Shown here: one piece after another, positions 12,209-59,744 of the stretch | Layout: each line of letters starts with the position of its first letter | Numbering within the stretch: position 1 is the first letter of the stretch | Assembly: GCA_025526915.1 (NCBI GenBank) | Contig: JAHLKH010000033.1 | Span: 1-64,000, forward strand | Length of the DNA stretch: 64,000 nucleotides | From: Entophlyctis helioformis | Taxonomy: Eukaryota > Chytridiomycota > Chytridiomycetes > Chytridiales > Chytriomycetaceae | Direction: 5' to 3' | Made by a program: the position numbers and the translations under genes | Notes under the pieces: generated by a model | The model's input: only the letters and a program-made list of their open reading frames with translations | What the model was told of the DNA's origin: nothing | The model's database searches: none

Positions 12209-16393
<4,185 letters not shown>

Positions 16394-23132: not shown

Positions 23133-24518
23133 ATGCCCACGACCACAAACAACAACGACAACGACGACGACAACAGGAGTCTAGAGGCACGCATCTCGCG
23201 CGAGATTGACAGGCAGATTGAAAAGGACCGCATAGCACGGCGCCTTATTGAGCAGCAGCCACTTGTGCTGCTTCTCGGCGCGTCCGACTCGGGCAAAACG
23301 ACTCTCCTCAAAAACTTTCGCATCCTGTACACGGCCGGGTTTACTGCAGAGGAGCGCGCGGCCTTCAAGCGCATCCTGATGGACAATATACTGGATTCGG
23401 TCAAGATGGTGTTGATGACGTGCGCAGCCAGCGGTTCTGAGATGGGCGGCGCGGCAAATGAGGCGGCGCAACGGGTGCTGGCGTACCATCGGAATGTGCA
23501 GGAGAGCGAGTTGCCGCGAGAGGTGATGGACGACATCAAAGCAGTGTGGAGTGACAGCGCAGTTCAGGCTGCTGTGCCATTGGCTAGCGATCTGCAGGAT
23601 ACGGCCATCGAGTATGGGCTGCTTGGCTTGTTCATGTTCATGACATCCGGTGGGGATGGGGGACTAAAACAAACCTGCCGTGGTGGGCGGACAGGTTCAT
23701 TGACAACATCGAGTTGTACAGCAACTCTGGCTACTCACTCACAAATGACGGCAAGTCGTGAACGATGCCATTTGAGATGCACTGACAGATGGGGCTGACG
23801 CTTGGTATGGATGCCTGGGCGGATGTGCGGATGGGCGGATGTGCTTGACAGATATCTTAAGAGTGCGGTTTCGGACTTCTGACATCTCCGAGACCTCCAT
23901 TACGCTCAACAAAGACATGCATACATCGGCGCGGTTTGTGGACGTCAGCGGCATCAAGTTTGACCGCAAGCACTGGCTGCCATACTTTGACAATGCCAAC
24001 ACGATCATTTTTGTTGTGTCGCTGTCGTCGTTTGACCAGATGCTTGTGGAAGACCCAAGCATCAACCGCATGACCGACGCACTCGAGCTGTTTGACCACA
24101 TCTGCAATCACCCGCTGCTCGACAAGGTCGACACGATTGTGTTTCTCAACAAAAAAGACCTGTTCAAGAAGAAGCTCAAGACGCGAAAGATTGCCGACTA
24201 CTTTCCAGTGTACAAGGGCGAGAACGACTACAAGGAGGGCATCAAGTTTTTCCAAAAGGTGTTTGTAAAGCTTAATCGGTCCACCAGCCGCGATATTATT
24301 GTGCATGCAACGACATGCACAGACCAACGGTCCATCAAGATTGTCCTTGCGTCCATCATGTAAGCCTGAGCCATGGCTTGCCTGCATGCTCTCTTGTTTT
24401 CTGCTACGCGCCGTTGCACCGCCCAACTGCAACGGGATGCTGACACCACGCCACGCATGCCTTGTGCAGAACCAACATCACGAAGCAAAACATCATCAAT
24501 GCGGGCATTTCGAATTGA
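23133..24518 (+). CDS. G-protein alpha subunit, array copy 1 (atypical switch II)
   Basis: Exons 23133-23611, 23695-23750, 23852-24359 and 24470-24518 give 363 aa. Ras-like fold with inserted helical domain. P-loop GASDSGKTT; switch I ILRVRFRTSDISET keeps the Arg and Thr used in hydrolysis. Switch II reads DVSGI instead of DVGGQ, so the catalytic Gln is absent. Base recognition is by FLNKKD and TTCTD. The protein ends in NAGISN without a Cys at -4. This is the most divergent copy, with Asn/Asp-rich N-terminus and no MG..C lipidation signal. Intron 2 starts with GC. Family knowledge: loss of the switch II Gln usually abolishes GTP hydrolysis; whether this copy still cycles is unknown. The start at 23133 is a choice among several in-frame Met codons. 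Confidence 0.85.
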
Positions 24519-26721
24519 AGTGGAGTTTTTGAAGTTATCCAAAACAGATTTTATAGACTAGATCGCCGACGGCAGCATCGACAACGCCTTGCCAAACGCC
24601 ATTTGTTTGCATTCGTCGCACGAGGCTCCACCATACCCACACCTGCTACAACCGACACGCCAACCCGCACTGACCCGCATCCCAGTGGCGCTGCAGCAGC
24701 ATCGGCTCGACAGCACCGCCCCCGCCCCCGCATTCGAGCTCAGCAGCACCGTCGCACGAATTTCGCTGCAGCCACACACCTGACCGAAAAGCCACCAACT
24801 CGCGAGCCACATTGCCCGCTGGGCCACCTGCCAAGATTCCAGCCGACAGAAGGCCGTCGATAATCTCGCTCATGACGCCCGAGGATAAACAACTGTAAGT
24901 CTGGCTCGCAGGCCGGGCCGTGTGCGTGTCTGCCCCTCGTCTGCCCGCCGCCAAGCAGCAGCAGCCTGCCCTGCCCCCTCCCTCCCTCCCTCCTCCTCCT
25001 CCTCCCTTTCCCCTTGCGCTTTATTGCATCTTCTCGAGGGCCGCTTCTCGTTGCCACCCGGCACGCTCGACAGGACCAGCGCAATGCAGCAGGCCACGCC
25101 ATCACCACCCGCCACGGCAATGCCACTCACGGCCCCAACGCAAGCCAGATGCCCACTCGGCCAGGTCCACCGGCCAGCCGGCCAGGCCAGGCAGAAGCCC
25201 AACCAGCGAGCAAGCCAGCAGCAGCAGCAGCAGCAGCAGCACCTCTCCTGCGACACGGCCACCAGCAGCCATCGCATCTGCAGCTTCATCGCGCTCTCGC
25301 CGCCAGCCTCCACTTGGCACACTGGCTGTGCCTGCAGCAAACAGTGGCAGCTGCAGCAGACGGCTCGTGCCCACAGGCGGAAGCCTCAGCCCTTGCCCTC
25401 GGCCAGCAGCAACCGCAAGGGAGCATGATGCAGCAGCTGCGTTTCCGCTGCACGGCGCGATGTGGATGCGCACACACGGGTCTGGATGGCAGAGCCTGGG
25501 CTGCACCGTCGTGGTTGAGCCGACAGCGATGAGCCGACAGCGATGGATTAGCAGCAGCAGCACCACCACCACCACAACCACCAGCAGCACCGGCAGCGCT
25601 ATCTTGAGGCTGCATGTCTGTCGGCGCATGACGGCCCTGTCCGCCGACCCGGTCACGCCTTGCACAGATGGCACTTGTGCCAGCACTGCGCTGCATCGAC
25701 AGCCTGCCGGGACGGACCGGTGGACAGCCAGATGCTGGTGGCTCAGCACATACCCAGCCACGTGTCCGCTCGTCGCGGGCGGAGCTGGCCGGATCCTTTG
25801 GGGCGGTGGCAGCGCAAGGACACGCAATGCAACTTGTGCATCCGTCCGCCCGCCATCCGCCATCCGACCATTCGCCCGTCCGCCCATCCGCCCGTCCGGC
25901 CGTTCTTCCGACCGCCGAGCCCGCCTCCATGCTCGCAGCTTGCGCCGCCGCCTCGTCCAACCACATCTCCCCACGCGGTGTCTGCAGCTCTGCCTCGACG
26001 ACCCCTTCCCTCCTTACCACTTTTCCCTTGCTGCGATTACTTGTGCTTCACCCACCCTCTCTGTGGCTGCTGCTGATCTGCTGGGCCCAATGCGTGGTGC
26101 TCAATGCGTGGTGCTCAATGCGTGGTGCTCAATGCGTGGTGCTCAAAGCATGGCGCATGGCGCACGGCTTGGCTCTAGCCCTTTGGCTCTGCATCCAAGC
26201 CCCGCCCGCCCTTCCTTGACACCCTTGTTCCTGTCAACTGACCACTCGTGCATCTTTCATTACCGCTGCTCGTCATCTGCTCGTCATCTGCAACGCCGCC
26301 ACCATTGTCAATACTCCCAACGCCGTCCTGTGCGCACCCGTCTTGCTCTGCATCGCATCGTCTTGTTCGCGTTTCTGGCTGGCTCGCCTTCCTCTCCCCC
26401 TTTGGACTGGCCGGATATGCACTGGCGCGAACCACATCGTGTCGGTTCCTGGCGGGTATCGACTTGGGTGGCGCGGCTTTTCGTGGCGTGACGCGCATCA
26501 TCTCCTCTCGTCGCCATCCACCACTGCTGGGCCTCATATGCCCTCGCAAATCATGATGACGTCGTTGGCTCCACCATGAATGGGGCTTGGTATGGGGCTC
26601 CTTCAATCCACCAACCCACCAACGAAACCGGCCGACCGGCTCCTGTGTTCTCGCGACGCCACCAACGCAACACTCCGCGCCACCAACCCCCCAACCGCCT
26701 TGGATTGCGCATTCGCCTCTC
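24519..26721. other. 2.2-kb stretch without a recognised gene
   Basis: Both strands contain long open frames, but they are low-complexity (Pro, Ser, Arg, Cys, Ala runs), mutually overlapping and without motifs I recognise. The region is C/T-rich on the plus strand, with CTCC runs near 24975-25010 and CCGCC/CATCCG-type repeats near 25850-25910. It could hold a long 5' leader or upstream exon of the second G-alpha gene; nothing in the sequence proves that. Confidence 0.4.
26088..26143. repeat. 14-bp tandem repeat, four copies
   Basis: Four near-perfect copies of TCAATGCGTGGTGC head to tail, in the gene-free stretch upstream of the second G-alpha gene. Confidence 0.9.
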
Positions 26722-28432
26722 ATGTGCGATGCTCAATGGATTCCCTACCCGCCAACTCACCTGCGGACAACAACCATCTCCAGCGTGGCGCTTGAGAAAC
26801 AGCGCTCTCGAGCGATAGACGCCATGATACAAAAGGAGCGCGAGCAACTCAAAAACAACAAGGATCCAAAGATTCTCATCCTGGGAAGCGGCGACTCTGG
26901 AAAGTCTACGTTCATCAAGCAGCTCAAGATTCTGCACGGTGGTGGATACTCGGACGACGAGCGCAAGTCGTTTCGTGGTCTGATTCTGGAAAACATCCGT
27001 GAATCCATCGTGTCTGTCATCTTGGCCGCCAGGGAAATCGGAATCAACATTGGGAATGAGGAGTCACAGGTGCGGCTTGCTCTCGCGTCAAGCATGCCAC
27101 CTGCATCATGTTTGATACTCGCTGCTGCTTCCATGTGCATTAACACTTGATTCACTCGACTGTGTGCCATGTCGGTTGGTATCTGTCTGGTTTAGGCCAA
27201 GATATCAGAGATCCTTGACTACTATCGAGTCGGGTCAGAGGAGCTCGCAAGGTACAAGATCACGCCGAGAATAGCGTCCATGATCGACGAAATCTGGAAG
27301 GATCAAGACTTGCAAAAGGTTTACATTGAGCGCGGGAAGCTCAAACCCACGCTCATGATTCCAGACAATGCTCAATAGTGAGTTGGGAGTATGGACTTGC
27401 CCTGAGTCAAGGCATCCCCTTGCACCCCTGATGGCGTGTTTGGCTACCCAACTGTGGCTCTGCAGACTGACCATACTGACCTCGTGACGCCTAATAGCTT
27501 CCTTGACCGGGTCGTCAAATTTGGCGACATTAAATTCTTGCCGACAAACGAAGGTAACGCCAGGCTGCTGCTCCTGCTGTTCCTTGCACATTTGGCCTTA
27601 CGTTTGCCTTGCAACCGCATGAACAACTGCAAACGCGTGCGTCACAGACATTGTCCACACAAGGTCCATGACAACGCAAATCACCGAGACCATCTTTGAG
27701 ATCGAGCGGGTCGCGTATCACTTCTTTGACGTTGGCGGCCAACAAAAGTACCGCAAGCAATGGACGCCCTTTTTCGACACAGTCGACAGCATTCTCTTCA
27801 TTGCATCTCTCGCCTCATACGACCAGGCGCTGATGGAGGACCCGAGCATCAACCGCATGACAGACGCCATCCAGCTCTTTGCGCAGATTGCGCATCATCC
27901 TCTCCTCAAGCACATCCCCGTCACGCTCTTCTTGAACAAGAAGGACTTGTTTGAGAAGAAGGTGCCTGCGTCTGACGTTGTCAAGTTTTTTCCCGAGTTC
28001 AAAGGCAAGTTGGCCGGCACGCGGAGCCTGCTTGCTTGCCTGCTTGATTGTTCGAGGCAAACCTAGTGCGGCACGCGGCCATTGGCTAACAACAACTCTT
28101 GCGATGACGTACCAACTCGACAGGAGCAATCGGCAATATCAAGCACGCTGCGAAATTCTTCCAAAAGAAGTTTGAATCCGAGTGCACCGACCAAAACAAG
28201 CAACTCTTTGTTCATTTTACATGCTGCACGGACACCGAGGCGATGGAGATTATTGTACTCACAGTCATGTACGATCCTTGACTCGTTTCTGTCCATCTGC
28301 TTTGATCACATCGTCGCACTCTGGCAATGCTCAATGACGAGATACTAACACAATGCGGCTGCGCTTGCAATGGCAATGCCCACCAGTCAGGCAATGCTCA
28401 AGAAGGAGTTTCAGTCAATCGGCATGCTCTAG
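26722..28432 (+). CDS. G-protein alpha subunit, array copy 2
   Basis: Exons: about 26722-27069, 27196-27377, 27498-27553, 27648-28004, 28124-28268 and 28387-28432. All junctions after the first exon agree in phase. P-loop GSGDSGKST, switch I TRSMTTQITET, switch II DVGGQQKYRKQW (catalytic Gln kept), FLNKKD and TCCTD are intact, so this copy looks capable of binding and hydrolysing GTP. The C-terminal tail is EFQSIGML. Intron 4 starts with GC (GCAAGT). The last intron contains a perfect TACTAAC branch site before the CAG acceptor. The 5' end is unresolved: 26722 is an in-frame ATG, but a further upstream exon is possible. Confidence 0.85.
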
Positions 28433-29265
28433 ACACGGACGAATGGGAGTTCAAGGGAAGCAAGGTTGTGGGCATGTATGGAAGCAGGGATGTGGGAATG
28501 GAATGGGAGTGAGACTCGGACATGGACATGGACAAGGACAGGCTGGTGGTCGGAGAAGCGCACTGGAACGGCGGCAACAGCAACGGCGGCATGGATGGAC
28601 GGCATGCGGAAGATGGCAGATCTCTTTTCATTCGCGCATGTCTCGTTTGTTACGCGGTCGACTGCTCCTTCTGGTGTTCTGGCGTTGCTTCTTCGGCCGG
28701 TCCGTTCCATGGCATATGCGTGAGGTACAGCAGAGTCATTCCACACCGCGCTGATCTGATCGAGGGCAAAATGAATTATTGTTCGTCTCAAGGTATCATC
28801 AATATGTGGGATGCAGCGAGTGCACGGGTTGGCAGATGAGCAGACGGTGTTGAGACAGAGATCCAGTGTACTGCTCCCAGTGCGGATGGGCGTGATGCGT
28901 CTGTTGTTTGTGGACGCTCTTGCTTGCAAGCCATCTCAATGCTATCAGCGGATGTCGCTTTGCAGCGGCCCTCTGCATGGGAGAGCCCCAAGCAAGCACA
29001 GCTCAACACGGCCGTCAGCAGACGTGTCGCAAGCCTTGGCGAAGCCTGCCTGTCTCGCCTCTGTTGACCCCTTTTTCAAGATACGCGAGCATTACATGCA
29101 ATGTAAACAACCTGTCTGCATCGCTTTGTCATACATCTCGGCGCGAGGATTCCACCATCTGTGTCGGATATTCGGATATTGACATTTGTTTGCCTTGCCA
29201 CGCCGTGTGCTCCTTCTCGGCTCGATCAAGAAAGGTTTCCGGTCTGACAAACGACAGACACTCTG
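28433..29265. other. Intergenic region between G-alpha copies 2 and 3
   Basis: 833 bp without a supported exon. Just upstream of copy 3 the sequence CTGAC...ACAG resembles a 3' splice site (about 29235-29256), so an additional 5' exon for copy 3 may lie here. Confidence 0.4.
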
Positions 29266-31017
29266 ATGAGCTCGCCCGTAGACCCAAAGCGCATCTCTCG
29301 CGAGATTGATGCGCAGCTTGCTCGCGAGAAAGTGCAGCTCGCACTCAAGGCCAACAAGGAGCCTCGAATTCTGGTCCTTGGCTCTGGAGACAGCGGAAAG
29401 ACGACCTTTATGAAGCAGCTCAAGATCCTCCACGGTGGCGGATACGGCGACGACGAGCGGCGCCAGTATCGCAAACACGCCGCGGACAACATTGCCGACT
29501 CTGTCCAGAGTCTGCTGGCAGCTGCAGAGGCGTTGGATGTCTCGCCAAAAGACAGAGCACTCGAGGTCCGTCTCTCTCTGTTTGCGACTGTGTGCTGTGT
29601 GCGCTGCCGCAGCTGTTCGCGGCTCGTTCGCATGTTTGTTTGCATACTGTGCGGTGGAATAGCCACGAGTCGAACATCTGGGCACTGCTCTTGCTTCCCA
29701 TCGCGATTCCTGCATCTCTGCCGTTTGGTGGCTCAGCACTTGTCGTCGACTGGCTGACTGACGAGGCTTGCTTGTCCAGAGCACCATTACGAAAATCGTG
29801 GATCACTACCAAGATGGTAGCGCCGAGCTCACTCCCGACATCGCTGAGGCCATCGAGAAGGTCTGGGCGGATGAGAACATGTGCGGCATACTACCGTTGC
29901 CGCCCAGCACTGCAATCCAGATTCAAGACACTGCTGGGTAGTACGTGTTGGCTGCATTGCTCCTTGTCGAGGGCAGGGCATTCGCAGTGCTGATCATGAC
30001 TGTTTGCCTGTGTCACGGCAGCTTTCTGTCCAAGGCTGTACAACTCGCTGATCAACAGTACCTCACGACAAACGAAGGTGACGAGCAGACGCTGTGAGCT
30101 ATGCGCGTACGCAGGGCACTGACAGACAGTGCCATCGGCGTTTGGGCCGGCAGATATCCTAAATCTTCGGATCCCGACGACACAAATCACCGAGACAATC
30201 TTTATCATTGAGAAGCTACAGGTGCGATTGGCAGCCAGGCACTGGGGTCATGCCTTATTGGAATCTACCCACTAACTCGCATCGCTCCAAAGTTTAAATT
30301 TTACGATGTGGGCGGGCAGCTCAAGCACCGCAAGCACTGGGTACACCTTGATCCAACCATCGTTGACGTTTTTGAGACGTCGCTGCTGACACGGCACGCC
30401 ACGCTTTCACGACAGGCGCCGTACTTTGACAATGTGCACAACATCCTGTTCTTCATCTCGCTCGCGTCGTACGATCAGGTGCTTGTCGAAGACCCGACCG
30501 TCAACCGCATGCACGACGCGATGAACCTCTTTGGACAGATCTGCAACCACCCGCTGCTCAAGCACATCCCCATCACGCTGTTCATGAACAAGAAGGATCT
30601 GTTTGAGAAGAAGCTTGCAACGTCCGACGTCAAGCGGTTCTTTCCCGACTTTAGCAAAGGTGGGAATCGACTGCATCCGTGTTGCATACGTACTCGCGAT
30701 CGCTCTTTGCTGACGGTTAGGATGCCGACGTGCGTGCAGAGTGCAACTTCAAGAACGCAACGCGGTACTTTGAGCGCAAGTTTCGATCACAGAACCAGGT
30801 CGAAGTCGAGCCTGGCCAGGAAAAGAGCATGTTCTGCCATGTCACGTGCTGCACAGACACGGGCGCCATGGCCATCATCATTGCATCTGTCGTGTGAGTG
30901 GTTGCTGCTCAGTCTTGACTGATTGTGCTTGTATGCACAGTTGTTGACACTCGCTTTGCCTCATGGCGCAGCCACTCGCTTCTTGTGAAAAATCTGCAGA
31001 CAGGCGGCATGATGTGA
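29266..31017 (+). CDS. G-protein alpha subunit, array copy 3
   Basis: Exons 29266-29565, 29780-29940, 30022-30077, 30154-30221, 30293-30340, 30416-30659, 30740-30893 and 30972-31017 give 358 aa in consistent phase. P-loop GSGDSGKTT, switch I LRIPTTQITET, switch II DVGGQLKHRKHW, FMNKKD and TCCTD are all present. The tail is KNLQTGGMM. The N-terminus is MSSPVDPKRISREID, with no Gly2. It has the most introns of the array, including one directly before switch II and one directly after it that other copies lack or share only in part. The seventh exon uses the second AG (before 30740); the first AG, at 30720, would break the frame. Confidence 0.88.
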
Positions 31018-31194
31018 CTGCCCTGTGCTTTTTCATGGCATGTCCGTATGCTAAAGTCTAGATTGAAACGTGCTTTGGTTTGCGGAAGTGTTTCTGTTGA
31101 GATATGATGCCTCAACTATCACATTCCACACGTGTTGTGTGGGCTCACACTTTTAGCTCAACAGTTTCCTTCTTCTATCCACGTGTCCTGTCCA

Positions 31195-32913
31195 ATGGCG
31201 ACGAAAAGGCAAAGTGAGTGTCCTCGGCCGCTTCGCATTTTTCGTGTTGCAGTCTGCGCATTGCTGCCGGCTGCGGCAGAGCGGCTTTGCAGCTTTGGAC
31301 AATGCCAAGACGACCATCTGCAGTTGGCTGATACGGTATCGTCTACCTGCCCAACCAAACCCATGTCGATGGCCACCAAACGCCGGTTCCAGGCTCGATG
31401 CGAGGTCAAAGGAGATTGACGCGGAGCTCGCAAAAGACGCTCGGCTGCGCGCCAAGATCAAGGACCATCCGCATGTGCTTGTCCTGGGCTCGGGGACAGT
31501 GGAAAGACCACGTTCCTCAAGCAGCTCAAAATCCTTCATGGCGGCGGATACGGCAACGACGAGCGCAATGCCTTCCGCAGGCATATTCTCGACAATATCT
31601 CCCTCTCCGCGACCGCGCTTGTGGCGTGGGCAGGCACTCGAGATTTCGGAGCTGGCTCGGATTTGACTGTTCGTTTGTTCGCAGGCTTGACACGGTCAAC
31701 ACGGTCAGTGACACTAACAGGACGTGACAATGCATGCAGAATCGGATCGTGGCGGTAGCCAATCACTTTCAGACCTCGAAAAACACTGAGAATTCGATGC
31801 CAAAGAGTGTTGCAATGGATATCGAGCACATCTGGGCAGATGAAACAGTCAAAGCGGCAGTGGCCAAGGCAGCCCCTGGCGAGCTGGTACTGCAGGACAT
31901 GGCTGATTTGTACGTTGAATGACTATCTTTGACAATGTGTCCGCAATGTGACTGACGTGCGACATGTATTCTCGCTCTCATTGCATCCAGCTTCCTGTCG
32001 CAAGCAGTCAAGCTCTCAGACGTCAACTACGTGCCAACCGACCAAGGTCAGCTGCACGCGGATTGGATCTCATCCAGAAGGCCATGGCATGCGGTGGCTA
32101 ACGCGCAACCGTAGACATTCTCAACCTGCGCGTGCCAACCACCCAGATTACCGAGACGGTCTTCAAGATTGACGGCAAATCCTACCATTTCTTTGATGTG
32201 GCTGGGCAGCAAAAGTACCGCAAGCGCTGGGTACTTTATTGCCAAATGCTATCCTCGCCTTGACCGTTAGAAAGCTGCTGATTGTATGCTCAACTCGGCC
32301 ATTGACACTTCAAATAGGCACCGTACTTTGACACCGTGCACAACATCCTCTTTCTGATCTCGCTGGCGGCCTATGACCAGATGCTCGCGGAGGATCCAGC
32401 AGTCAATCGCATGACGGATGCAATCAACCTCTTTAGTGATATCTGCAACAACGAGCTGCTCAAGAAGATTCCCGTGACGCTCTTTATGAACAAGAAGGAC
32501 TTGTTTGAGAAGAAAATGGCGACCTCGGACATTGCCTTGTACTTTCCAGACTACGCTCGTAAGCCTGTACACGCATGTAACCAGCATGTCGCCTCTACAA
32601 GACTAATCGACGCTGCTCGTCGGTTTCCGTTCATTGCCCTGCACAGAGATTGACCCCGCCAAGCGAGACTTTAAGCGAGCTGTCAGATTCTTTGAGAAGA
32701 AGTTTTCGACCGCTGCGAAAAGCGTGCAGGCCAACCGTATCTTTGATTCACACGTCACCTGCTGCACTGACACCAATGTCATGAAGACGGTGATCCATTC
32801 TGTCATGTACGCTGCCTCGCCCCCAATGTCTGCAACGCCGATCCGCACGCGCTGACTTGTATTGCAGTGACTCCATCATCAGGACCACGATGCGGGATGT
32901 TGGCATTGCTTAG
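31195..32913 (+). CDS. G-protein alpha subunit, array copy 4, apparent frameshift in the P-loop
   Basis: Exons: 31393-31668, 31740-31909, 31991-32046, 32115-32230, 32318-32558, 32647-32806 and 32868-32913. A small first exon at about 31195-31213 is suggested, but its phase does not fit. In the P-loop the run of four G at about 31491-31494 must be five to read GSGDSGKTTF; as given, the frame is lost there. Downstream everything is conserved: switch I LRVPTTQITET, FFDVAGQQKYRKRW, FMNKKD, TCCTD and tail RDVGIA. Switch II has Ala in place of the second-last Gly (DVAGQ). Intact splice sites and downstream frame argue for a consensus error over a dead gene. Confidence 0.8.
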
Positions 32914-32941
32914 TGCGCAATAAAACTCAGCGTCCGATCTC

Positions 32942-34698
32942 ATGAAGTCTATACTGTCCCCGAAAGCGAGCGGACCAGGCGAAATGAGGTCTGCTGCACA
33001 GCATCTCACACTCAACAGCACATGGGCTGACCGTGTGCCTATACCCATAGCCACAGGCGGTCTGCATCTGCAGAGGAACGGGCACGATCGAGGGATATTG
33101 ACACGTTGCTTGCCAAAGACAAACAAGACTGGCAGAGGCTTGTTCAGCAGCCAAGAGTGCTTGTGCTTGGCAGCGGAGACTGCGGCAAGACGACTTTTAT
33201 GAAGCAGCTGCGCATCCTGCATGGCGGCGGGTACGAGGACTTTGAGCGGATGGCCTACAGAAAGTATCTCGTCAGCAACATCCGCGACGGAGCCACTGCG
33301 CTCATTGCATGGGCGACTGGCCTCGGAATGGACAAGACCAGCACAGACCTTGCCGTATGTCGTGCTGCTGGATTCCAGCAGCCACACGGCGTGTTTGCTC
33401 ATCACACGTTGGATATCGCAGCTAACCAATCACCGCATCTGCTGCCCATCACCGGCTCAGAGTCACATACAGACCGTCATGGACTACTATACCCGAGCGC
33501 CACCAAACACAACCAAACTTCCACAGGCCGTTGCAAAGGCAATCGAATCCATCTGGTCAGATGCACACATCAAGGAAGCCGTTCTCACGGCAACGCCGTC
33601 CGAGCTGAGCATGCAAGACACAGGCGACTAGTACGTGGCCACGATGCCGATCACCGTGTTGCACGCCAGACTGACACTTGGCTTTGCCAACTGGCATTCA
33701 GCTTTCTGTCACAGGCCGCCACGTTTGCAAACGACCAGTACATTCCAACCAACCAAGGTCAGCGACAGCAGTAGTCGCTGAGTCACCTTTTGCACTCTGT
33801 GTGTATCGACAAACGCACTCATCCAGCCTCTCTCTCTGTCGTATCGCAGACATCCTCAATATTCGCGTTCCGACCACACAGATCACCGAAACCGTCTTCA
33901 ACATCAGCGGCAAGCCATTCCACTTTTACGACTGCGGCGGACAGCAAAAATACCGGTATGGACACAGCCTTGCATTATTCCGCACATCTAATGAGTATGC
34001 CCGTTTGCGATCAACAGGAAGGCATGGACGCAGTACTTTGACAAAGTGCAGCACATTCTGTTCTTGACATCGTTGGCATCGTACGATCAGATGCTCGTGG
34101 AAGACCCGACCGTCAATCGCATGACAGACGCCATCACGCTCTTTGGAGAAATCTGCAACCATCCGCTGCTCAACCGGATCCCAGTCGCGCTCTTCATGAA
34201 CAAGAAGGATCTGTTTGAGAAGAAGATGGCAACGTCGGACATTGCCAAGCACTTTCCAGACTATGAAAGTAAGTTCTTGGAACTCTATGCATGATATAGA
34301 CGCTCCCTGTTTCTCAACGCTTCTGCACCTGGATCACATGCTTGGCAAGACTTGAGCCCAGAGAAGCGCGTCTTCAAATATTCGGCGCGGTTTTTTGAGA
34401 AGAAGTTCATTGCGGCCATGACGCAGGGCAACGGCGGCGATCGGGGCATGTTCATAGGAACGTACCTCACGTGCTGTACCGACACCAATGTTATGGCGGC
34501 AGTCATCAAAACTGTGCTGTGAGTTCCAGAACGCCTTGCAATCCGGCTTTGTGTTTGTAGCGAGCTGTTGCCAGGGGCCACGGACTCATTGATGGGGCAT
34601 TGCTTCCATGGTTTCTGTTGCCGAATGCTGCTTCTTTGGTGTCTAAACACAGAGAGGCACTTGTGCGCGGAAGTTTGAAGGACGTGGGACTCGTCTGA
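32942..34698 (+). CDS. G-protein alpha subunit, array copy 5
   Basis: Exons: tentative 32942-33032, then 33074-33354, 33473-33630, 33702-33757, 33850-33955, 34018-34268, 34350-34518 and 34653-34698; from the second exon on all phases agree. P-loop GSGDCGKTTF (Cys in place of Ser), switch I IRVPTTQITET, switch II DCGGQQKYR with Gln kept, FMNKKD, TCCTD, tail KDVGLV. It begins only 28 bp after copy 4 ends. About 33163-33957 is nearly identical to copy 6, introns included. The proposed first intron is very short (41 nt), so the N-terminus is uncertain. Confidence 0.85.
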
Positions 34699-34764
34699 AA
34701 TGAACGAACTCGTCTTCCAAATCAAATCTTATGCAAGATTCGTTGAGCTCACCAGCTTCGGCTT

Positions 34765-36469
34765 ATGCTTCGCCAAGAGGGTCGCTGGTTAGCCTCTCGA
34801 GGTGTGGCATCGATGGCAGATACTGTCAATACATCCCCTGCACTTGCCTTTGCATGTGGCCAACTGATGCTTCACTGCATGCTGGTCTGAAGCCGGCAGC
34901 TGGCAGAGGAACGAGCCCGATCAAAGGCCATTGATGACCAGATAGCAAAGGACAGGGCCTCAATGATTGCTCGCGGCTCTGACCCGCGAATTCTGGTGCT
35001 TGGCAGCGGAGACTGCGGCAAGACGACTTTTATGAAGCAGCTGCGCATCCTGCATGGCGGCGGGTACGAGGACTTTGAGCGGATGGCCTACAGAAAGTAT
35101 CTCGTCAGCAACATCCGCGACGGAGCCACTGCGCTCATTGCATGGGCGACTGGCCTCGGAATGGACAAGACCAGCACAGACCTTGCCGTATGTCGTGCTG
35201 CTGGATTCCAGCAGCCACACGGCGTGTTTGCTCATCACACGTTGGATATCGCAGCTAACCAATCACCGCATCTGCTGCCCATCACCGGCTCAGAGTCACA
35301 TACAGACCGTCATGGACTACTATACCCGAGCGCCACCAAACACAACCAAACTTCCACAGGCCGTTGCAAAGGCAATCGAATCCATCTGGTCAGATGCACA
35401 CATCAAGGAAGCCGTTCTCACGGCAACGCCGTCCGAGCTGAGCATGCAAGACACAGGCGACTAGTACGTGGCCACGATGCCGATCACCGTGTTGCACGCC
35501 AGACTGACACTTGGCTTTGCCAACTGGCATTCAGCTTTCTGTCACAGGCCGCCACGTTTGCAAACGACCAGTACATTCCAACCAACCAAGGTCAGCGACA
35601 GCAGTAGTCGCTGAGTCACCTTTTGCACTCTGTGTGTATCGACAAACGCACTCATCCAGCCTCTCTCTCTGTCGTATCGCAGACATCCTCAATATTCGCG
35701 TTCCGACCACACAGATCACCGAGACCGTCTTCAACATCAGCGGCAAGCCATTCCACTTTTACGACTGCGGCGGACAGCAAAAATACCGGTAGGTAGCTTG
35801 AAAACCTCGCGCGAGTCTCCAGCCACTCGACTAAAGGTTATGAGAACATGCAGGAAAGGATGGACGCCCGTACTTTGACAAAGTTCACAATATTGTCTTT
35901 CTGATCTCGCTCGCGTCGTACGATCAGATGCTCATAGAGGACCCGACTGTCAATCGCATGACAGACGCCATCACGCTCTTTGGACAGATCTGCAACCACC
36001 CGCTACTCAAATCCATTCCGGTCACGCTGTTCATGAACAAGATGGACCTGTTTGAGAAGAAGATTGCAATGTCGGACATCGGCAAGCACTTCCCAGACTA
36101 CCATAGTAGGTTCATTGGCTCTTATTGGCCATGTAAGACTGCCTTTGTTAAACATTGCGCCAACATGTAGAGATTAGCGCTGAGAAGCGAGGGTTCAAAA
36201 AGGCTGTTCGGTTTTTTGAGAAGCTGTTCCGAGGCACGATAAACGGAGACCAAACAGGCGAGAAGAGCGGTTTCTTGGTGACATACATCACGTGCTGCAC
36301 TGACACCGAGGTCATGTCTGCGATCGTGAAGCCGGTGCTGTGAGTTCCATTGATCCTTGGCGTGATTGTACGTCCCGCATACTGCTCACTGCTCACTGAC
36401 ACAATTGATCGCCGGTCAAATAGAGCAAGCGTTTTGAGGAGGGGTCTCAAGGATGCTGGATTGATGTAA
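34765..36469 (+). CDS. G-protein alpha subunit, array copy 6, apparent one-base insertion
   Basis: Exons: tentative 34765-34780, then 34907-35187, 35306-35463, 35535-35590, 35683-35788, 35854-36105, 36171-36339 and 36424-36469. P-loop GSGDCGKTTF, switch I IRVPTTQITET, DCGGQQKYR, tail KDAGLM. The guanine-specificity motif reads FMNKMD where the other copies have NKKD or NKQD. After switch II, CCC at 35867-35869 has one base more than the paralogues (TGGACGCCGTAC) and puts the frame out by one just before YFDKVHNI. Everything beyond is conserved. The first half matches copy 5 almost base for base. Confidence 0.8.
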
Positions 36470-36841
36470 TCATAGAGTGGCACTTTTGCGTGGAGATTGC
36501 AGGAGGCTGTGCAGATATAGAATACATGTCGTGGTCGGCCAGGGTTTATGATTGAACTCTTATCATTACAAACTGCCCTCCGACCACGTCTAGCCTTTCG
36601 ATCAACTTGACAGTCACATTCTTGCTGGTGGCATGGTTGCCGATGTGCATTCTCCACTGGCCGCCGATGCAGACTGCAGACTCGAACCGGTATGGGTATG
36701 TTTCGCTAGCCAAATGGAAGACGCCGGACCAATGTGCGCGACCCATTGTCTTCTGCGGCGTGATCACGTGACTTGGATCTGCGGCGTCGTTTCCAATCCG
36801 CCAATCTCGCTCCCTCTCCCGCCTTGTTGCCTTCCGCTGCC
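36470..36841. other. Intergenic region upstream of G-alpha copy 7
   Basis: 372 bp without a supported exon. It carries the palindromic box TCACGTGAC at 36764-36772, 70 bp before the copy 7 start codon. Confidence 0.4.
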
Positions 36842-38475
36842 ATGTCGGGCTCTGTGATTAGTTCTCCAGCTGCTTCGTCTGCAAGGAGCGCACGATCGGA
36901 ACAGAAAGCGGCCGACGGAACAAAGTGAGAGGCGGCTGCATTCCTCTTGGCTGGGGGCATACGAGCTCCCAACCACCAGCCTCCTGTGCGATTGCTGCTG
37001 CATAGTCCCTGCTGACTGGCATTATGACCGTAGGCTAGCAGATGCGCGCGCCAGATCCAAAGCAATAGATGCGATGCTCGCCAAGGACAGACTCGAAAAC
37101 GAAAAGCTCATGAGCGAGCCACACATCCTGCTACTAGGCAGCGGCGACAGCGGCAAGACGACGTTTATGAAGCAGCTGCGGATCCTGCATGGCGAAGGAT
37201 ATTGCGAAGAGGAGCGGCATGCGTTTCGGAGGCACATTGCGCATAACATCCGCACCGCCGTGACCTCATTGGCTGTGTGGGCCGCGAGTAACCATCTGGG
37301 AAGGGAGTCTGAATTCTCGGTATGCACGCCGAAATAGCAGTCACTTGCGCAAGTTGACATGCGCATGCGAGCAATAGTGTTGTTTGGGCACTATGATGTC
37401 GCTGTCGACTACTGACGATCAAACACTGTTTCCAGAAACGCATCGTCGCTATCACCGACCATTACCAAGGTGCGCCAGACGACTGTGATCGGATGCCGCA
37501 CGAGATCGCCAAAAACATCGAGCTCATTTGGGCAGACGACACGATGAGGAAGGAGCTGGCCAGAGCCAACCCAGCCGATCTGACACTGCAAGACACTGCA
37601 GACTAGTGGGTTCGAGTTAGCCATGGTTAATCAATGTATCATAGACTGACCTGCGCATTGTCGTGACTCGTGCCAACCGTCGCCCAGCTTCTTGTCACAG
37701 GCAACCAAGTTTACTGCAGACGACTACCTCCCAACAAACGAAGGCAAGCAATAATGTTGAGATCGGTTCAATATGAGCGTCGAACATATCCGTAACGAGC
37801 ATTCTGTTTTGACACTTGCCAATGCACATGGCATCACAGATATACTGCGGATCCGCCTGCCAACAACCCAAATCTACGAGACTGTGATCCGAATCCAATC
37901 GACACTGTACCACTTCTTCGACGTGGCGGGCCAGCAACGATACAGGAAGCAATGGATCCCATACTTTGACACCGTCCACAACATTCTCTTTCTGATCTCG
38001 CTCGCATCGTACGATCAGGTGCTTGCGGAGGACTTGAGCGTCAACCGCATGCACGACGCCTTGACTCTCTTTGGCCAGATCTGCAACCACGAGCTTCTCA
38101 AAAGCATACCCATCACGCTGTTCATGAACAAGAAGGATCTGTTTGAGAAGAAGCTTGCAACATCCGACGTCAAGCGGTACTTTCCCGACTACAACAACGA
38201 GACGCGCGATCTTCGCAAGGCGTTGCGGTACTTTGAGAAAAAGTTTCGGGCACAGAACCAGCAGCCGGAGAAGCGTCTATGGGTTCATGCAACGTGCTGC
38301 ACGGACTCGAATGCAATGCGAGTTATTGTCATTACCGTCGTGTGAGTGGCTGCTTGGTCGGATGGCTGTGCCGCGCTTCTACACGGACTGACTGGCAGGT
38401 CTTGGTGCTGTTTGGATGCGCGATGGCAGAGACACGATGCTCGCTGCCGAGATCAAAAGCACGGGATTCATGTGA
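36842..38475 (+). CDS. G-protein alpha subunit, array copy 7
   Basis: Exons 36842-36924, 37034-37319, 37436-37605, 37688-37743, 37840-38341 and 38430-38475 give 380 aa with every phase consistent. It is the best-resolved copy, including its N-terminus (MSGSVISSPAASSARSA), which lacks the Gly2/Cys3 lipidation signature. P-loop GSGDSGKTTF, switch I IRLPTTQIYET, switch II DVAGQQRYRKQW (Ala for Gly, Gln kept), FMNKKD, TCCTD, tail KSTGFM. Introns found after switch II and before the alpha4 region in other copies are absent. Intron 4 begins with GC (GCAAGC). Confidence 0.9.
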
Positions 38476-38890
38476 TGGAAAGAGCTGCACGTGTCGGCGT
38501 GGTGCGGGGTGCAAGTGTCTTGGCGGTGAATGCTGCTGGTGCCAGGGTTGTGTTGCGCTGTTCTGCGCTGTACTCGCTGCATCAATTTTGTGGCACCCAG
38601 CGACCGAATTAAGGAGAAAGCGGCCCGATCTGGGTTTGCCACCAAAGTCTTACTCTCGAACAAAATGGAGGCATCAAGGTACTTTGCCACGGCCACACCC
38701 CCTGTAGACCGCCGGTGTGCGAAGCTGCGCCAGATGGGCGGCGCCGGCCAGTGTCCAGCGGTATCGGCAGCGCCGTGTCCTGGCAGAGCGTCCCTTGTCA
38801 TGCATGTCTCCAAACTCGCATTCGTCGCGGATTCGCCACTGACCGTCTCGCCACACTGTCTATTTCGATGCGGCCGGCACCCATTGTTCA
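38476..38890. other. Intergenic region between G-alpha copies 7 and 8
   Basis: 415 bp with no supported exon or RNA gene; nothing distinctive seen. Confidence 0.4.
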
Positions 38891-40550
38891 ATGGATGACA
38901 CTGCAAACCCCTCGGCGCACACGACCAGCAGCGAACAGACACGCAGGAAGTCAAAGGAAATAGAGCAGCAGCTTGCCAAGGACAAGGCCAAGTTCGAGAA
39001 GCTGATGCGCGAACCGCAGATGCTGCTGCTCGGCAGCGGCGACAGCGGCAAAACCACGTTCATTCGGCAAATCAAGATCCTCCACGGTGGAGGCTTTACC
39101 GACGACGAGCGGCGGTCATACCTGAAGCATATTGTCGCAAACACGATGGACTCGATCCTTAGCTTGGTCAAGGCTGCAGAACAAGGCGGCTACGACCTGG
39201 AGGCCAAGGTACGCATGCAGCGCGCACTGTTTCCCCTTCGCCGCTTTCATTCTCGGTTGTCCTGTTGCTTTTCTCCCTTTGAATCCCCAGAACGTGAATC
39301 GATTTGAAGGCCCGCCGCGTCGAGAATGGTGCTGACGTCGACATACTCACAACTCCTTCGTCGGCGCTTTTGCCGGCAGGCCGCTGCCACAAAAATGATC
39401 GACACTCTGAGCGAATACACGTCAAGGCCATCCATCGAAGATACATACACGCTTTTCCGCGAGCTGGCGCCTGATATTGATCTCGTCTGGAGAGACCCAG
39501 CCATCCAGAGGCTGTTTTCCGATAGCGGCAAGCTGCACATTATCGTCCAAGATACTGCGGACTAGTGGGTTCTTTGCTGGCTGCTGCTGAATGCGGCGAT
39601 TCGAGTTTGTGCTGAGCAACGCCGCCTTTCTTCCAGCTTTCTCAACCAGGTGACGGCTATCGCCGATCCCGCGTACCTGCCGACAGATCAGGGTAAGCCA
39701 TGAGGCGATTGCCGCCACAATGCCCAGCAATCACCTCCAACCCCTGCCACAGAGGCTGACATGGCTGTTGCGCCGGACATGCTGCAACAAAGACATCATT
39801 CATGCACGGTTCCCGACAACCCAAGTGTCCGAAACGACTGTGCAGATCAACACAGGAAGGCGAGTGGCTCTTGGAGCACAATGCCTCGCCAAAGCATGAC
39901 GGATCTATTGGCTGATCTATTCTCTTGCTGCAGATTCCACTTTTACGATTGTGGGGGTCAAGTGTCCCACCGAAAGCACTGGGCACCGTACTTTGACAAG
40001 GTACACACGATCCTTTTCGTGGCCTCGCTTGCGTCCTATGACCAAGTCTTGGTTGAGGATCCGACCGTCAACCGCATGCACGACGCCATCACGCTTTTTG
40101 GCGAAATTTGCAACCATTCGCTGCTGCGGCATATCCCGATCACGCTCTTTCTCAACAAGCAGGATCTCTTTGAAAAGAAGTTTAAAAACTCGGAAATCAA
40201 GAAGCATTTTCCAGACTATCATCGTAAGGATACCAATGCTCCTCCATGCCAAACGCTCTGGCTGCGATGAAGACTGATGCACTGCTTACGGCTTGGACGC
40301 GTTTATGCACTGCTTCATCGCGACCAATGCGTCCATCCCTGATCAACTCACGACAGATAGCAGCGATAACATCAAAAAGGCATATCGATACTTTGAAAGA
40401 AAGTTTACGTCACAAAACCAAGAGCCCAACAAGAAAATCTATACGCACGTCACATGCTGCACGGACACCAAAACGATGGAAGTCGTTGTCACGACGGTCG
40501 CCAATAGCATGCTCAACATTGGCTTGCGACAAGGCGGCTTGATGATTTGA
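38891..40550 (+). CDS. G-protein alpha subunit, array copy 8
   Basis: Exons 38891-39208, 39380-39564, 39637-39692, 39793-39859, 39934-40223 and 40357-40550 give 369 aa in consistent phase. P-loop GSGDSGKTTF, switch I ARFPTTQVSET, switch II DCGGQVSHRKHW with Gln kept, FLNKQD, TCCTD. The tail RQGGLMI is read straight through: the intron that splits off the last 46-nt exon in the other copies is missing here. The first exon contains the N-terminus and P-loop together (MDDTANPSAH start). The fourth intron starts with GC (GCGAGT), inferred because only this site keeps phase before FHFYDCGG. Confidence 0.88.
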
Positions 40551-40812
40551 TGGACGCATCCAAATGGACAATGAAACACTTTGCTCTCCGTGGCATGAAT
40601 GGATGCACGTATACAAGCAGCCATCAAGCAATCGCAGCGCATTCCTATAGCGCACCTATGCATGATACGCCTCGTCGGGTAGATTGATGACGCAACAAGG
40701 CGTGTCCTGCACTTGTGTCACGTGACTGTTGCGTGGTGTTGTTTACAGACACGCCCCAAAGATCAGGCTCAATATTCTGCAGACTGTTCGAAACAGGCGA
40801 CATCGCCCCACA

Positions 40813-42690
40813 ATGAGGTACGAGAGTAGGCGGCACAACCGTGCAGATCTGGAAGCGTGTGGGCCTCGGCCTCCCTCAAAGCAGCTGGCCAAGCGATCGA
40901 ACTGCGTGCAGCCTGTGCCATCCTATTCCTGCTGTGCCACCACTAACTGCGTCACTGTCCGACGGCGCTTGCCTCTTGTGATCCCAACGAATTCGCAAAC
41001 ACAGCCAGCCCGAAGACTCAATCAATGCAGAGCACCAGCGAGCAAAATCTAGAGAGATCGATCTCCAGATCTCAAAAGAGAAGGAGGAGCGCGAGCGAAT
41101 CTCCAAGGAGCCGCATATTCTGGTTCTTGGCTCTGGCGATAGCGGCAAGACGACCTTTATGAAGCAGCTCAAGATCCTGTATGGCGGCGGCTACGGCAAC
41201 GACGAGCGTCAACAGTACCGCACTCAGATTATTGAAAACATTCCGCGACTCGTTCACCCGGCTTGTCGATGCATGCGATGGCTATGAGTCTACCATCACC
41301 AACCCGGTCACAAAGGTAAATATCCGCTCAGAATCCACCACATATTGGTATGTTTGCCGACTGCGTTTGGCATGCTTGATGGCTGGTATGGGATATGGTA
41401 CGATCTCGTGGGGGAGTGCTGCGCATCCTGCGACTGCATGTCTTTCTCGATCGCGATCTGCTCTATGCCAGCACCATGCCTGCCATGTTTTCTGAGCAAA
41501 CTAGCCAGGCGATCTACAGTCCTGTGGCCGTCAGAACCGGTAGCCAACTGACTGCATGGCACGCGTCCTTGCTGCAAACCAACGCACACAGAATGCCATC
41601 TCCAGCGTGGAGGAGTTTTGGCGAAAATACGAAGAGGCCAAGGCCCGGCAGCCACTTCCTCTGTCGCCCGAGATCGGTGATAAGATAGTCGATGTCTGGA
41701 ACGACCCGGATCTTAAGGACGTCTATAGCCGCGCGACAAAGGCGCAACTGCAAGACACGGCATACTAGTGAGTGGCGGTTATGTGGATGGTACGGCCTTG
41801 TATGCAGGCGACTGATCGACTGTTTCTGCTTGAAAGTTTCCTTGAGAATGCCAAAAAGTTTGCCGATCCATCCTACAATCCCACAGACGCGGGTATGTTT
41901 GTATGCCAATCAAGCTCTCACAGCCGCCATGCTGTTTCTAGACTAACAGACGGCTCTCTGGCTTGACATTGTCAACAGATATCCTGCATCTGCGCATCTC
42001 GACGACAGCCATCACAGAGACCATATTCAGGATCGGCAAGATATCATACCACTTTTTCGATGTCGGTGGCCAGCAAAAGTACCGCAAGCGTTGGACGCCG
42101 TACTTTGACAATGTGCACAACATCCTGTTCTTCATCTCGCTCGCATCATACGATCAGATGCTTGTTGAAGACCCCACTATCAACCGCATGCACGATGCGC
42201 TCGACCTGTTTGGCAAGATCTGCAACCACCCGCTGCTCAAGCACATCCCCATGATGCTGTTCATGAACAAGAAGGATCTGTTTGAGAAGAAGGTCCAGTC
42301 CTCTGAAATCAAGCGATTCTTCCCCGACTTTGCCAGTAAGTTTGCCAAACACCGATTGAATGACGTGCATGTGCATGTGTGTGCTCACAACTGTAACTGC
42401 GGCGACGGGAATGTAGAAAAGAACACGTATGAACATGCTGTGCGCTTCTTTGAATCCAAGTTCACGGCGCAGAATGAGCAGCCGCAGAAGGAGATCTTCG
42501 TGCACGTGACATGCGCGACCGACACCAACTCGATGAAGATTGTCATCTTGAAGTGCATGTGAGTGCCTGCTTCTATCCTTTTTGTCTTGTTGTGGTGCAC
42601 GACTGACACGGCCAGCACGCACGACTCGTGGGTCATGTGCGCAGTGAGACACTCACCATTCGTGCTGTTCAGAGCAGCGGCATCATGTGA
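40813..42690 (+). CDS. G-protein alpha subunit, array copy 9, apparent one-base insertion
   Basis: Exons: tentative 40813-40825, then 41031-41315, 41592-41767, 41837-41892, 41979-42335, 42417-42558 and 42645-42690. P-loop GSGDSGKTTF, switch I LRISTTAITET, switch II DVGGQQKYRKRW, FMNKKD, TCATD (the animal-like form), tail QSSGIM. In the helical domain ATTCCGCGAC (41241-41250) has one C more than needed for ENIRDSFTRLV; without it the whole gene reads cleanly. It lies 87 bp downstream of a TCACGTGAC box (40718-40726). It is the last member of the array. Confidence 0.82.
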
Positions 42691-58447: not shown

Positions 58448-59744
58448 TGCACCCGCCCGTCAGCCGGCCGGCCGGCCGCGCCACACGAAGCCCGATGGGG
58501 GTCATTCAAGCCAGGGCAGCCGGCGCGTGCGCGCACAAGCAAAAGGCTGCGTACCTTGCCAGAGATCTCCAGTCACGAGCCACAGAAGCCTGTGCAAGAG
58601 CGTCGGTGTGTAGGAGCCGGCCGGCGTTGTGGACCCTGGCCCGGCCTGTGCGATTGGTTGGTCGAGGGGCGGTCTGGCCGTGTTGTGGCGGCAGCACGTC
58701 AGTCGGCCAAGTCGCTGCGTTGCGATGCGATGTGAAGCGAGGCGAGGCGAGGCGAGGCGATGTGAAGCGATGAGTTGCCAGGCAACCCACAGCAGACGCT
58801 CTCGCTCTCTCGCTCTCGCTCTTCCACTCGCTCTCGCTCTCGCTCTTCCAGCCGCTCTTCCACTCGCTCACCGTGAGGCTGTTGCTGCTCCCCCAGACAG
58901 GCGCAGAGCGGGCGGCAAAGAGTGTGCGGCAATGGCCACGGCTGGCTGGTCCGCTGGTCCGCTGGCTGGTCGTTTGGTTCGGTGTTCGGTCTGTCTGCGT
59001 CTGCGAGTGCCAGTGCGTCTGCGAGTGCCAGTGCCAGGCAGGCAGGCAGCCGCACCAGGGCAAGGCCCAGACCCAGACCGTCAGTCCCATGGCTTCAGCA
59101 AGCCGGCGGCATGTCCCGCGGGCCTCGGCCGCATCCTCACCGGCCTGTCCGTCGCGCTGTCCGTGTGTCGGTCGGTCGCCCAAATGCACAAACAGCGGCA
59201 ACCCGCGACGGGCGGTGGTGGAGTCAGCCGCCCAGATCATACACCAAGGCAGCCGGACGGACAGCACAGGGATCGTTGGCATGAGGATAGCAAGGGATGC
59301 ATGGCGCAGAGGCGAGTCTGGCGGTCATGCGGAACCTGGCCAGCGTCGCTATCCAGTGAACAGGGCAGGCGAGAGGTGGTGGTGCCACGCCATGTGCGTT
59401 GCCATGATTGGCAATGCAGCATGCAGCCAGTAGAGGGCAGGCTGCGCATAGCACAGGGATGGGCTGCGATGATGGACAAGGCACGGCAGTGAACAAGACC
59501 GACAGAGGCCAGTGCAGGCGTTGGGATCAGGCCGTTTCTCATGCCGAAACGCGTGGCCGGCATGCACAATGCTTTTACAGTTGCATGAACAACCAACAGC
59601 AGATGCGTCTCGTCCATCCACTCGCTGCATCTCGGCAAGCGATGCTGGAATGGCTGGCATGCACCCTCCAGAGTCGCCCATTCCAGCCACTCGGCCAACG
59701 CAAAGCCGCGCTGAAACAGCCATGAGTCACTCGGGTCCGTGCAT
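58448..59744. other. 1.3-kb gene-free region with simple repeats
   Basis: Upstream of the giant gene and downstream of PEX12. It contains GGCGA tandem repeats (about 58738-58770) and a CTCGCT/CTCTTCCA tandem array (about 58794-58870). No supported exon was seen on either strand. It probably contains the promoter of the giant gene. Confidence 0.45.
58794..58870. repeat. CTCGCT/CTCTTCCA simple-repeat array
   Basis: A pyrimidine-rich strand made of CTCGCT hexamers alternating with CTCTTCCA units, repeated over about 77 bp. It lies upstream of the giant ASH-repeat gene. Confidence 0.8.

What the first reader, a model, noticed from the sequence alone, without database searches (positions are those of the whole stretch)
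23133..42690. Tandem array of nine heterotrimeric G-alpha genes in 20 kb
Nine consecutive same-strand genes encode the full G-alpha fold: P-loop GxxDxGK[T/S], switch I Arg/Thr, switch II, NK[K/Q/M]D and T[C/T][C/A]TD. Most fungi have three or four G-alpha genes in total, dispersed in the genome. Shared intron positions show local duplication from one ancestor, while sequence divergence shows that most copies are old and diversified. A cluster of this size suggests a lineage-specific signalling expansion, perhaps matched to many receptors.
Basis: partly seen in the sequence, partly recalled or inferred. Interest (0 to 1): 0.9.

Follow-up and report, generated by a model that had tools for sequence, protein, structure and literature searches.

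The report
Conserved nine-gene G-alpha array in chytrid
A chytrid fungus carries nine neighbouring genes for G-alpha signalling switches, an old array partly shared with related species, whose receptor-contacting tails look specialised gene by gene and whose first member lacks the residue normally needed to switch itself off.

Summary
In detail: nine same-strand G-alpha genes fill 23133-42690 of the Entophlyctis helioformis genome. Three copies (g4, g6, g9) each show a one-base frame break in this assembly. I count 16 G-alpha loci: these nine, five dispersed divergent ones, two canonical Gi-like ones.

The array is older than the species. Orthologues of g2, g3, g8 and g9 carry successive locus tags in the same order in Polyrhizophydium, and Batrachochytrium keeps some. 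g4-g7 group only with each other. AU tests reject the nine as one clade (p 0.013) and g2-g9 as exclusive (p 1.5e-6).

The seven most orthologue-specific of 317 protein windows all lie in helix alpha-5, the receptor contact. I read the array as transducers each kept for its own receptor class; this is inferred. None of the nine shows an N-terminal lipid-anchor signal. The catalytic Gln is replaced in g1 (Ile), its B. salamandrivorans orthologue (Met), C54 and its Polyrhizophydium orthologue (Met), and 14 of 14 Kappamyces-group rows (Leu). g5 and g6 share a 796-nt conversion-like tract. New variant of a known kind.

The parts
23133..24518 (+). g1: divergent G-alpha; switch II DVSGI (catalytic Gln replaced by Ile, codon 23953-23955); one intron with a GC donor
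   Evidence: AlphaFold model pLDDT 93.8, nearest solved structures G-alpha; orthologue in B. salamandrivorans BASA50_002798, 56% identical. The public model P0077 has a different first few residues
24872..28432 (+). g2: G-alpha with a first intron of about 1.9 kb; orthologue of Polyrhizophydium HK105_203782 and B. dendrobatidis BDV3_000755
29266..31017 (+). g3: intact G-alpha of 358 aa, eight coding exons; orthologue of Polyrhizophydium HK105_203783 and B. dendrobatidis BDEG_20315
   Evidence: phmmer to solved G-alpha E 1.3e-63
31195..32913 (+). g4: G-alpha with one single-base frame break near 31491, at the P-loop
32942..34698 (+). g5: G-alpha; 28 nt after g4 and 32 nt before g6
34731..36469 (+). 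g6: G-alpha with one single-base frame break near 35867
36842..38475 (+). g7: intact G-alpha of 380 aa
38665..40550 (+). g8: G-alpha; orthologues in Polyrhizophydium (HK105_203785, first unit), Homolaphlyctis and Batrachochytrium
40813..42690 (+). g9: G-alpha with one single-base frame break near 41243; orthologues in Polyrhizophydium (HK105_203785, second unit) and B. salamandrivorans (BASA50_002792)
33163..33958 (+). g5 side of a tract shared with g6: 796 nt with one mismatch (33890), introns included, abrupt ends
   Evidence: codon comparison
34996..35791 (+). g6 side of the same tract

Best explanation
An old tandem cluster of G-alpha transducer genes. A core with g2, g3, one or two middle genes, g8 and g9 (and probably g1) most likely existed before Entophlyctis, Polyrhizophydium and Batrachochytrium separated (supported by tree and locus tags). 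The middle slot was then duplicated to g4-g7 in the Entophlyctis line, with recent sequence exchange between g5 and g6 (tract shown, mechanism inferred). By sequence the proteins are GTP switches. They share a small Gbeta-gamma set, and each orthologue keeps its own C-terminal receptor-contact helix, so different members most likely couple different 7TM receptors, perhaps in zoospore or substrate sensing, to shared partners (inferred). Without myristoyl or palmitoyl sites they would be held at the membrane mainly through Gbeta-gamma and could leave it on activation (inferred). g1 keeps its GTP-binding motifs but not the catalytic Gln, so it should hydrolyse GTP slowly and act as a long-lived switch or as a sink for partners (inferred).
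For: Nine-gene array and motifs. Orthogroups with support 100/99 (g1, g2, g3), 97/97 (g9) and 96/98 (g8); Polyrhizophydium tags 203782-203785 in the matching order; middle genes as one clade not rejected, p 0.295. Four B. salamandrivorans members (P0009, P0012, P0021, P0082) list a longest contig of the same length, 1,914,327 b, with tag pairs nine and six apart. Purifying selection: g5/g6 outside the tract dN 0.28, dS 1.06. Alpha-5 windows rank 1-7 of 317 for within-minus-between-orthogroup identity; with complete tails only, the last 15-residue window ranks 1 of 313. Many 7TM places against two Gbeta loci over the cut-off, one Ggamma gene and one Ric8 gene. No Met-Gly start and no Cys in the first 25 residues in 9 of 9 (read; g4 from my own model), whereas canonical C21b starts MGCTSS.
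Against: No expression, binding or enzyme data. Three of nine frames are broken in this assembly. The alpha-5 test rests on 17 within-group pairs and overlapping windows; with 8-residue windows the tail shares the top with a helical-domain site at 138-140 and the last window ranks 13 of 320. G-alpha and GPCR numbers show no clear relation across fungi (PMC12842992, passages). In B. dendrobatidis two members carry tags 38 apart (QVD99_001683, 001721), so the cluster is looser there. Order in relatives is read from tags, not from DNA. A g1 orthologue was found only in B. salamandrivorans.
Confidence: 0.55

Rival explanations
1. Birth-and-death family: largely interchangeable copies kept up by tandem duplication, conversion and drift, with several members decaying.
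For: Frame breaks in g4, g6 and g9; g5/g6 tract; g4-g7 recent relative to the rest.
Against: Orthologues with their own tails kept across genera; nonsynonymous well below synonymous differences in all pairs tested, broken copies included. Breaks in short G or C runs could be assembly errors.
Confidence: 0.25
2. Receptor-independent switches: unanchored, self-activating G-alphas whose main control is RGS, as described for plants with 7TM-RGS.
For: No lipid-anchor signals in 9 of 9; Asp instead of the P-loop Glu in 9 of 9; a five-gene RGS array with hydrophobic stretches upstream of each RGS domain. Plant precedent: PMC3386157 (start of abstract in listing).
Against: Alpha-5 is the most orthologue-specific segment, unexpected if receptors do not matter; the -3 Gly of the tail is kept in 9 of 9 tails shown by my models; exchange rates unknown.
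Confidence: 0.12
3. Assembly artefact: one or a few genes multiplied by mis-assembly.
For: The assembly keeps haplotigs (C345 with C126, 97.5-99.7% identity); the 796-nt tract with abrupt ends.
Against: Copies are 34-57% identical except g5/g6; order shared with Polyrhizophydium; different introns and flanks per copy.
Confidence: 0.03

Closest known systems
Canonical heterotrimeric G-alpha (Gi/Go; here C21a and C21b of the same genome)
   Same: Fold, GTP-binding motifs, catalytic Arg, one shared intron position
   Different: 34-40% identity to g1-g9 at most (31-36%); P-loop Asp for Glu; no N-terminal Met-Gly; tandem array; g1 lacks the catalytic Gln
Expanded G-alpha sets of Mucor circinelloides (12 genes)
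   Same: Many G-alpha genes in an early-diverging fungus (PMC6936849, passages)
   Different: There placed in the fungal groups I-III by its authors; here a chytrid clade with a collinear tandem array. Whether the Mucor genes are in tandem was not checked
Tandem G-alpha duplicates of animals (GNAI-GNAT and GNAQ pairs, Trichoplax triplet)
   Same: Tandem duplication with shared exon borders (PMC5896119, passages)
   Different: Pairs or a triplet, not nine
Laboratory Gln-to-Leu, GTPase-deficient fungal G-alpha mutants
   Same: Hydrophobic residue at the catalytic Gln (PMC3285607, passages)
   Different: Natural and kept between species here: g1 type Ile/Met, C54 type Met/Met, Kappamyces group Leu in 14 of 14 rows; slow hydrolysis not shown

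Membership tests
Heterotrimeric G-protein alpha subunit (PF00503) | Profile match over the curated cut-off | tested here: met
   At least one exon hit over the cut-off, alone or with its neighbours in the frame, in each of the nine units
Heterotrimeric G-protein alpha subunit (PF00503) | P-loop, catalytic Arg, switch-I Thr, NKxD, TxxTD | tested here: met
   9 of 9, g4 read through its frame break
Heterotrimeric G-protein alpha subunit (PF00503) | Catalytic Gln of switch II | tested here: inconclusive
   8 of 9 have it; g1 has Ile
Heterotrimeric G-protein alpha subunit (PF00503) | Ras-like plus helical domain fold | tested here: met
   g1, the most divergent copy, modelled at mean pLDDT 93.8; the 50 rows shown by Foldseek are G-alpha entries or complexes, TM 0.82/0.91 for the first. 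One of nine modelled
Heterotrimeric G-protein alpha subunit (PF00503) | N-terminal myristoylation or palmitoylation signal | tested here: not met
   No Met-Gly and no Cys in the first 25 residues, 9 of 9. Common in the family but not used here as a defining feature; a missed first exon is possible
Heterotrimeric G-protein alpha subunit (PF00503) | Gbeta-gamma binding, GTP hydrolysis, receptor coupling | not testable with these tools
   Needs purified proteins or cells
   AU p 0.0126; g2-g9 exclusive p 1.5e-6
Conserved syntenic array | Same gene order in a related genus | tested here: inconclusive
   Polyrhizophydium tags 203782-203785 match g2-g3-middle-g8-g9; read from tags and fused models, not from DNA

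The most novel reading that the evidence does not exclude
Rhizophydiales-type chytrids run a distinct, unanchored class of G-alpha built around a conserved tandem switchboard of receptor-specific members, and have at least three times replaced the catalytic glutamine by Leu, Ile or Met, so that GTPase-deficient G-alphas, known mainly as disease or laboratory mutants, are normal conserved parts of their signalling.
Probability: 0.3. Interest if true: 0.8.

Novelty: new variant of a known kind. Interest (0 to 1): 0.62.

Why it matters
Fungi mostly have a few scattered G-alpha genes (three in Aspergillus oryzae; four in A. flavus and in Flammulina, abstract starts). A nine-gene array whose order appears to be kept in a related genus, and whose receptor tail is the most orthologue-specific part of the protein, is a natural system for asking how G-protein selectivity evolves against a nearly fixed Gbeta-gamma. 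The recurring, conserved loss of the catalytic Gln makes it testable how a cell lives with G-alphas that may not switch themselves off. The family reaches into the amphibian chytrids, whose zoospore sensing is little understood (recalled).

Tried and rejected
Assembly artefact: rejected on divergence and shared order. 'Nine genes are one private clade': rejected. C27 hit of the G-alpha profile: Arf-like on reading its sequence, dropped from the count. C345: counted with C126 as one locus (haplotigs). C54 needed a frameshift in my alignment, but the public model P0024 covers it without one, so I do not call it broken. Two-unit G-alpha proteins in Polyrhizophydium (P0072, P0073), Homolaphlyctis (P0074) and Kappamyces (P0075, P0076): treated as merged gene models, because the junctions lack the end of the first unit; real fusions are not excluded. 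Other splice sites to explain the g6 break: looked for by eye, none found. Dicty_CAR and secretin-type receptors: no hits, but neither search rang in any control genome, so absence is not shown. The stop-free stretch inside the first intron of g2 (24899-26491) looks low-complexity on reading its translation and is not proposed as a gene.

Literature: the listings showed no paper that by title or abstract start treats a chytrid G-alpha array or natural Gln-less chytrid G-alpha; most subscription journals are not held, and one survey that I wanted (10.1093/gbe/evu038) is not held.

Rows dropped before counts: the tree used 72 rows that I chose from the proteins plus my own models; many animal, nematode and unnamed metagenome hits were left out, and so were the later hits. 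The alpha-5 test used seven orthogroups, then six without rows that lack the tail.

Full report
WHAT IS THERE. The window is the first 64 kb of a 183,513-base contig (C33) of a 29.6-Mb, 482-contig genome. A protein spliced from the window is identical to a public Entophlyctis helioformis protein on a contig of that length, so I take the organism to be that chytrid. The G-alpha profile hits nine successive + strand units; a repeat search finds nine copies of one exon stretch without any protein model. Public models exist for all nine, but those of g4, g6 and g9 are distorted where my alignment needs a single-base frame break. The breaks lie in short G or C runs; whether they are assembly errors or young mutations cannot be told without reads. 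Two large stop-free frames in the window, 2545 and 1586 codons, speak mildly against a high error rate.

FEATURES. P-loop, catalytic Arg, switch Thr, NKxD and TxxTD are present in 9 of 9, the catalytic Gln in 8 of 9. g1 reads DVSGI; AlphaFold gives a confident complete model for it (mean pLDDT 93.8), and the 50 Foldseek rows shown are G-alpha entries or complexes with G-alpha. All nine have Asp where canonical G-alpha has Glu in the P-loop, as do most other chytrid rows of the tree. None starts with Met-Gly or has a Cys in its first 25 residues (g4 by my model), whereas canonical C21b starts MGCTSS. One intron position is common to all 16 loci, a second to the nine plus C39, C126, C130a and C130b.

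GENOME CONTEXT. The 45 exon hits resolve into 16 G-alpha loci: the nine; C21a and C21b (canonical); C54, C39, C126, C130a (cut by the contig end) and C130b (divergent). C345 is a haplotig of C126 (97.5 and 99.7% over two adjoining pieces), and the C27 hit is Arf-like. Partners: two Gbeta loci over the cut-off, one Ggamma gene on C2, one Ric8 gene, 17 RGS exon hits; class-C 7TM 50 exon hits in 30 places by my grouping, at least three of them haplotig copies; rhodopsin-type 7TM 28 exon hits in 25 places by my grouping, 17 with a hit over the cut-off, C169 apparently duplicating C22.

PHYLOGENY AND ORDER. A 72-row maximum-likelihood tree puts the nine in a 52-row clade of chytrid G-alphas (100/98), away from C21a/b, which join animal and amoebozoan rows (100/95). 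g2 goes with Polyrhizophydium HK105_203782 and B. dendrobatidis BDV3_000755 (100/99); g3 with HK105_203783 and BDEG_20315 (100/99); g8 with the first unit of HK105_203785 and Homolaphlyctis and Batrachochytrium rows (96/98); g9 with the second unit of HK105_203785 and BASA50_002792 (97/97); g1 with BASA50_002798 (100/99). The two units of HK105_203784 group with B. dendrobatidis and B. salamandrivorans rows. So Polyrhizophydium 203782-203783-203784-203785 follows the order g2-g3-[g4 to g7]-g8-g9. g4-g7 form a group of their own (100/98); putting them together with the middle genes of the relatives is not rejected (p 0.295), while the nine as one clade (p 0.0126) and g2-g9 as an exclusive clade (p 1.5e-6) are rejected. 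Order in relatives is read from locus tags and contig lengths only. In B. salamandrivorans four members list a longest contig of the same length with tag pairs nine and six apart; in B. dendrobatidis two members carry tags 38 apart, so the cluster looks looser there. I found a g1 orthologue only in B. salamandrivorans.

RECEPTOR-TAIL TEST. For seven orthogroups I compared identity within groups (between species) with identity between groups. Over the whole protein the means are 0.57 and 0.45; over the last 11 residues 0.55 and 0.25. Of 317 windows of 11 residues, the seven with the largest difference start at 338-344, in alpha-5. With complete-tail rows only, the top five 11-residue windows and the top three 15-residue windows are in alpha-5 (last 15-residue window rank 1 of 313), but with 8 residues the tail shares the top with a helical-domain site at 138-140 and the last window ranks 13 of 320. 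Alpha-5 is the main receptor contact in animals (established knowledge). With 17 within-group pairs and overlapping windows this supports, and does not prove, receptor-specific roles.

EXCHANGE BETWEEN g5 AND g6. 33163-33958 and 34996-35791 differ at one of 796 positions, introns included, with abrupt loss of identity on both sides. In the tract 168 codons show pS 0.009 and pN 0; outside it dS is 1.06 and dN 0.28. Gene conversion or a similar exchange is the simplest reading; an assembly slip is a lesser possibility.

NATURAL LOSS OF THE CATALYTIC GLN. g1 has Ile, its B. salamandrivorans orthologue Met; C54 and its Polyrhizophydium orthologue HK105_203773 have Met; 14 of 14 rows of the Kappamyces-Globomyces-Terramyces-Boothiomyces group have Leu; one basidiomycete row has Ala and one Ser; the tree needs at least four changes. 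A further Kappamyces protein not in the tree also has Leu (P0190). Gln to Leu is the standard GTPase-deficient mutation of fungal G-alpha (PMC3285607, passages). That the natural proteins are slow GTPases is inference.

STATUS OF THE MECHANISM. Shown by sequence: array, motifs, introns, clade, tract, tail conservation; shown by tags: order in a relative. Inferred from family knowledge: GTP switching and Gbeta-gamma binding. Inferred and untested: different members serve different receptors, perhaps in zoospores (the sole G-alpha of an oomycete affects zoospore mobility, PMC7010300, abstract start); release from the membrane on activation; long-lived signalling by g1. Against a simple receptor-number rule: no clear relation between G-alpha and GPCR counts across fungi (Pearson -0.256), though class-C receptors are enriched in Chytridiomycota and Blastocladiomycota (PMC12842992, passages).

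NOVELTY. The Mucor circinelloides group calls its set, with 12 G-alpha genes, the largest in fungi (PMC6936849, passages); 16 loci here exceed that, though I did not survey other fungi. Animal tandem G-alphas seen in PMC5896119 (passages) are pairs and a triplet. The eight searches named under Tried and rejected list no paper on this array. I rate it a new variant of a known kind.

Noticed in passing
G000:C76:90031-99107 (L039, L040): Five RGS genes in tandem at about 2.2-kb spacing. Three to five hydrophobic 19-residue stretches lie in the 1.6 kb upstream of each RGS domain (4, 3, 3, 4, 5) against 0, 4, 1, 1, 0, 0, 1, 2, 1, 0 in ten control stretches of the G-alpha array; possibly 7TM-RGS proteins like fungal class VI receptors (PMC10794492, passages).
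   Followed up: partly
G000:C33:70656-72547 (L041:6656-8547): A DEP domain in one reading frame and GGL plus RGS domains in the next one, on the same strand about 28 kb downstream of the array: the domain set of animal R7-type RGS proteins (recalled). Not spliced into one model here.
   Followed up: partly
public proteins P0031, P0044, P0075, P0076, P0190 (Kappamyces): Gln-to-Leu G-alphas with near-neighbour tags (HDV03_000587/000589, HDV03_002424/002426) or two units in one model: a second kind of tandem G-alpha cluster in that genus.
   Followed up: partly
window 31195-36469: Only 28 and 32 nt separate g4 from g5 and g5 from g6, leaving little room for separate terminators and promoters; shared transcripts are conceivable.
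   Followed up: no
window 45101-58459, strand -: Two very long stop-free frames (2545 and 1586 codons) with weak to moderate ASH/Cep192/CFAP-type Ig-like matches, perhaps flagellar or centrosomal proteins.
   Followed up: no
window 13931-16390, strand +: MYST-type histone acetyltransferase (MOZ_SAS, zf-MYST, Tudor-knot).
   Followed up: no
whole genome: NCBI files E. helioformis under Chytridiales, but its divergent G-alphas group with Rhizophydiales genera and not with Chytriomyces, Obelidium or Rhizoclosmatium; a B. dendrobatidis genome paper used it alongside Batrachochytrium, Homolaphlyctis, Polyrhizophydium and other genomes (PMC11797018, passages).
   Followed up: partly
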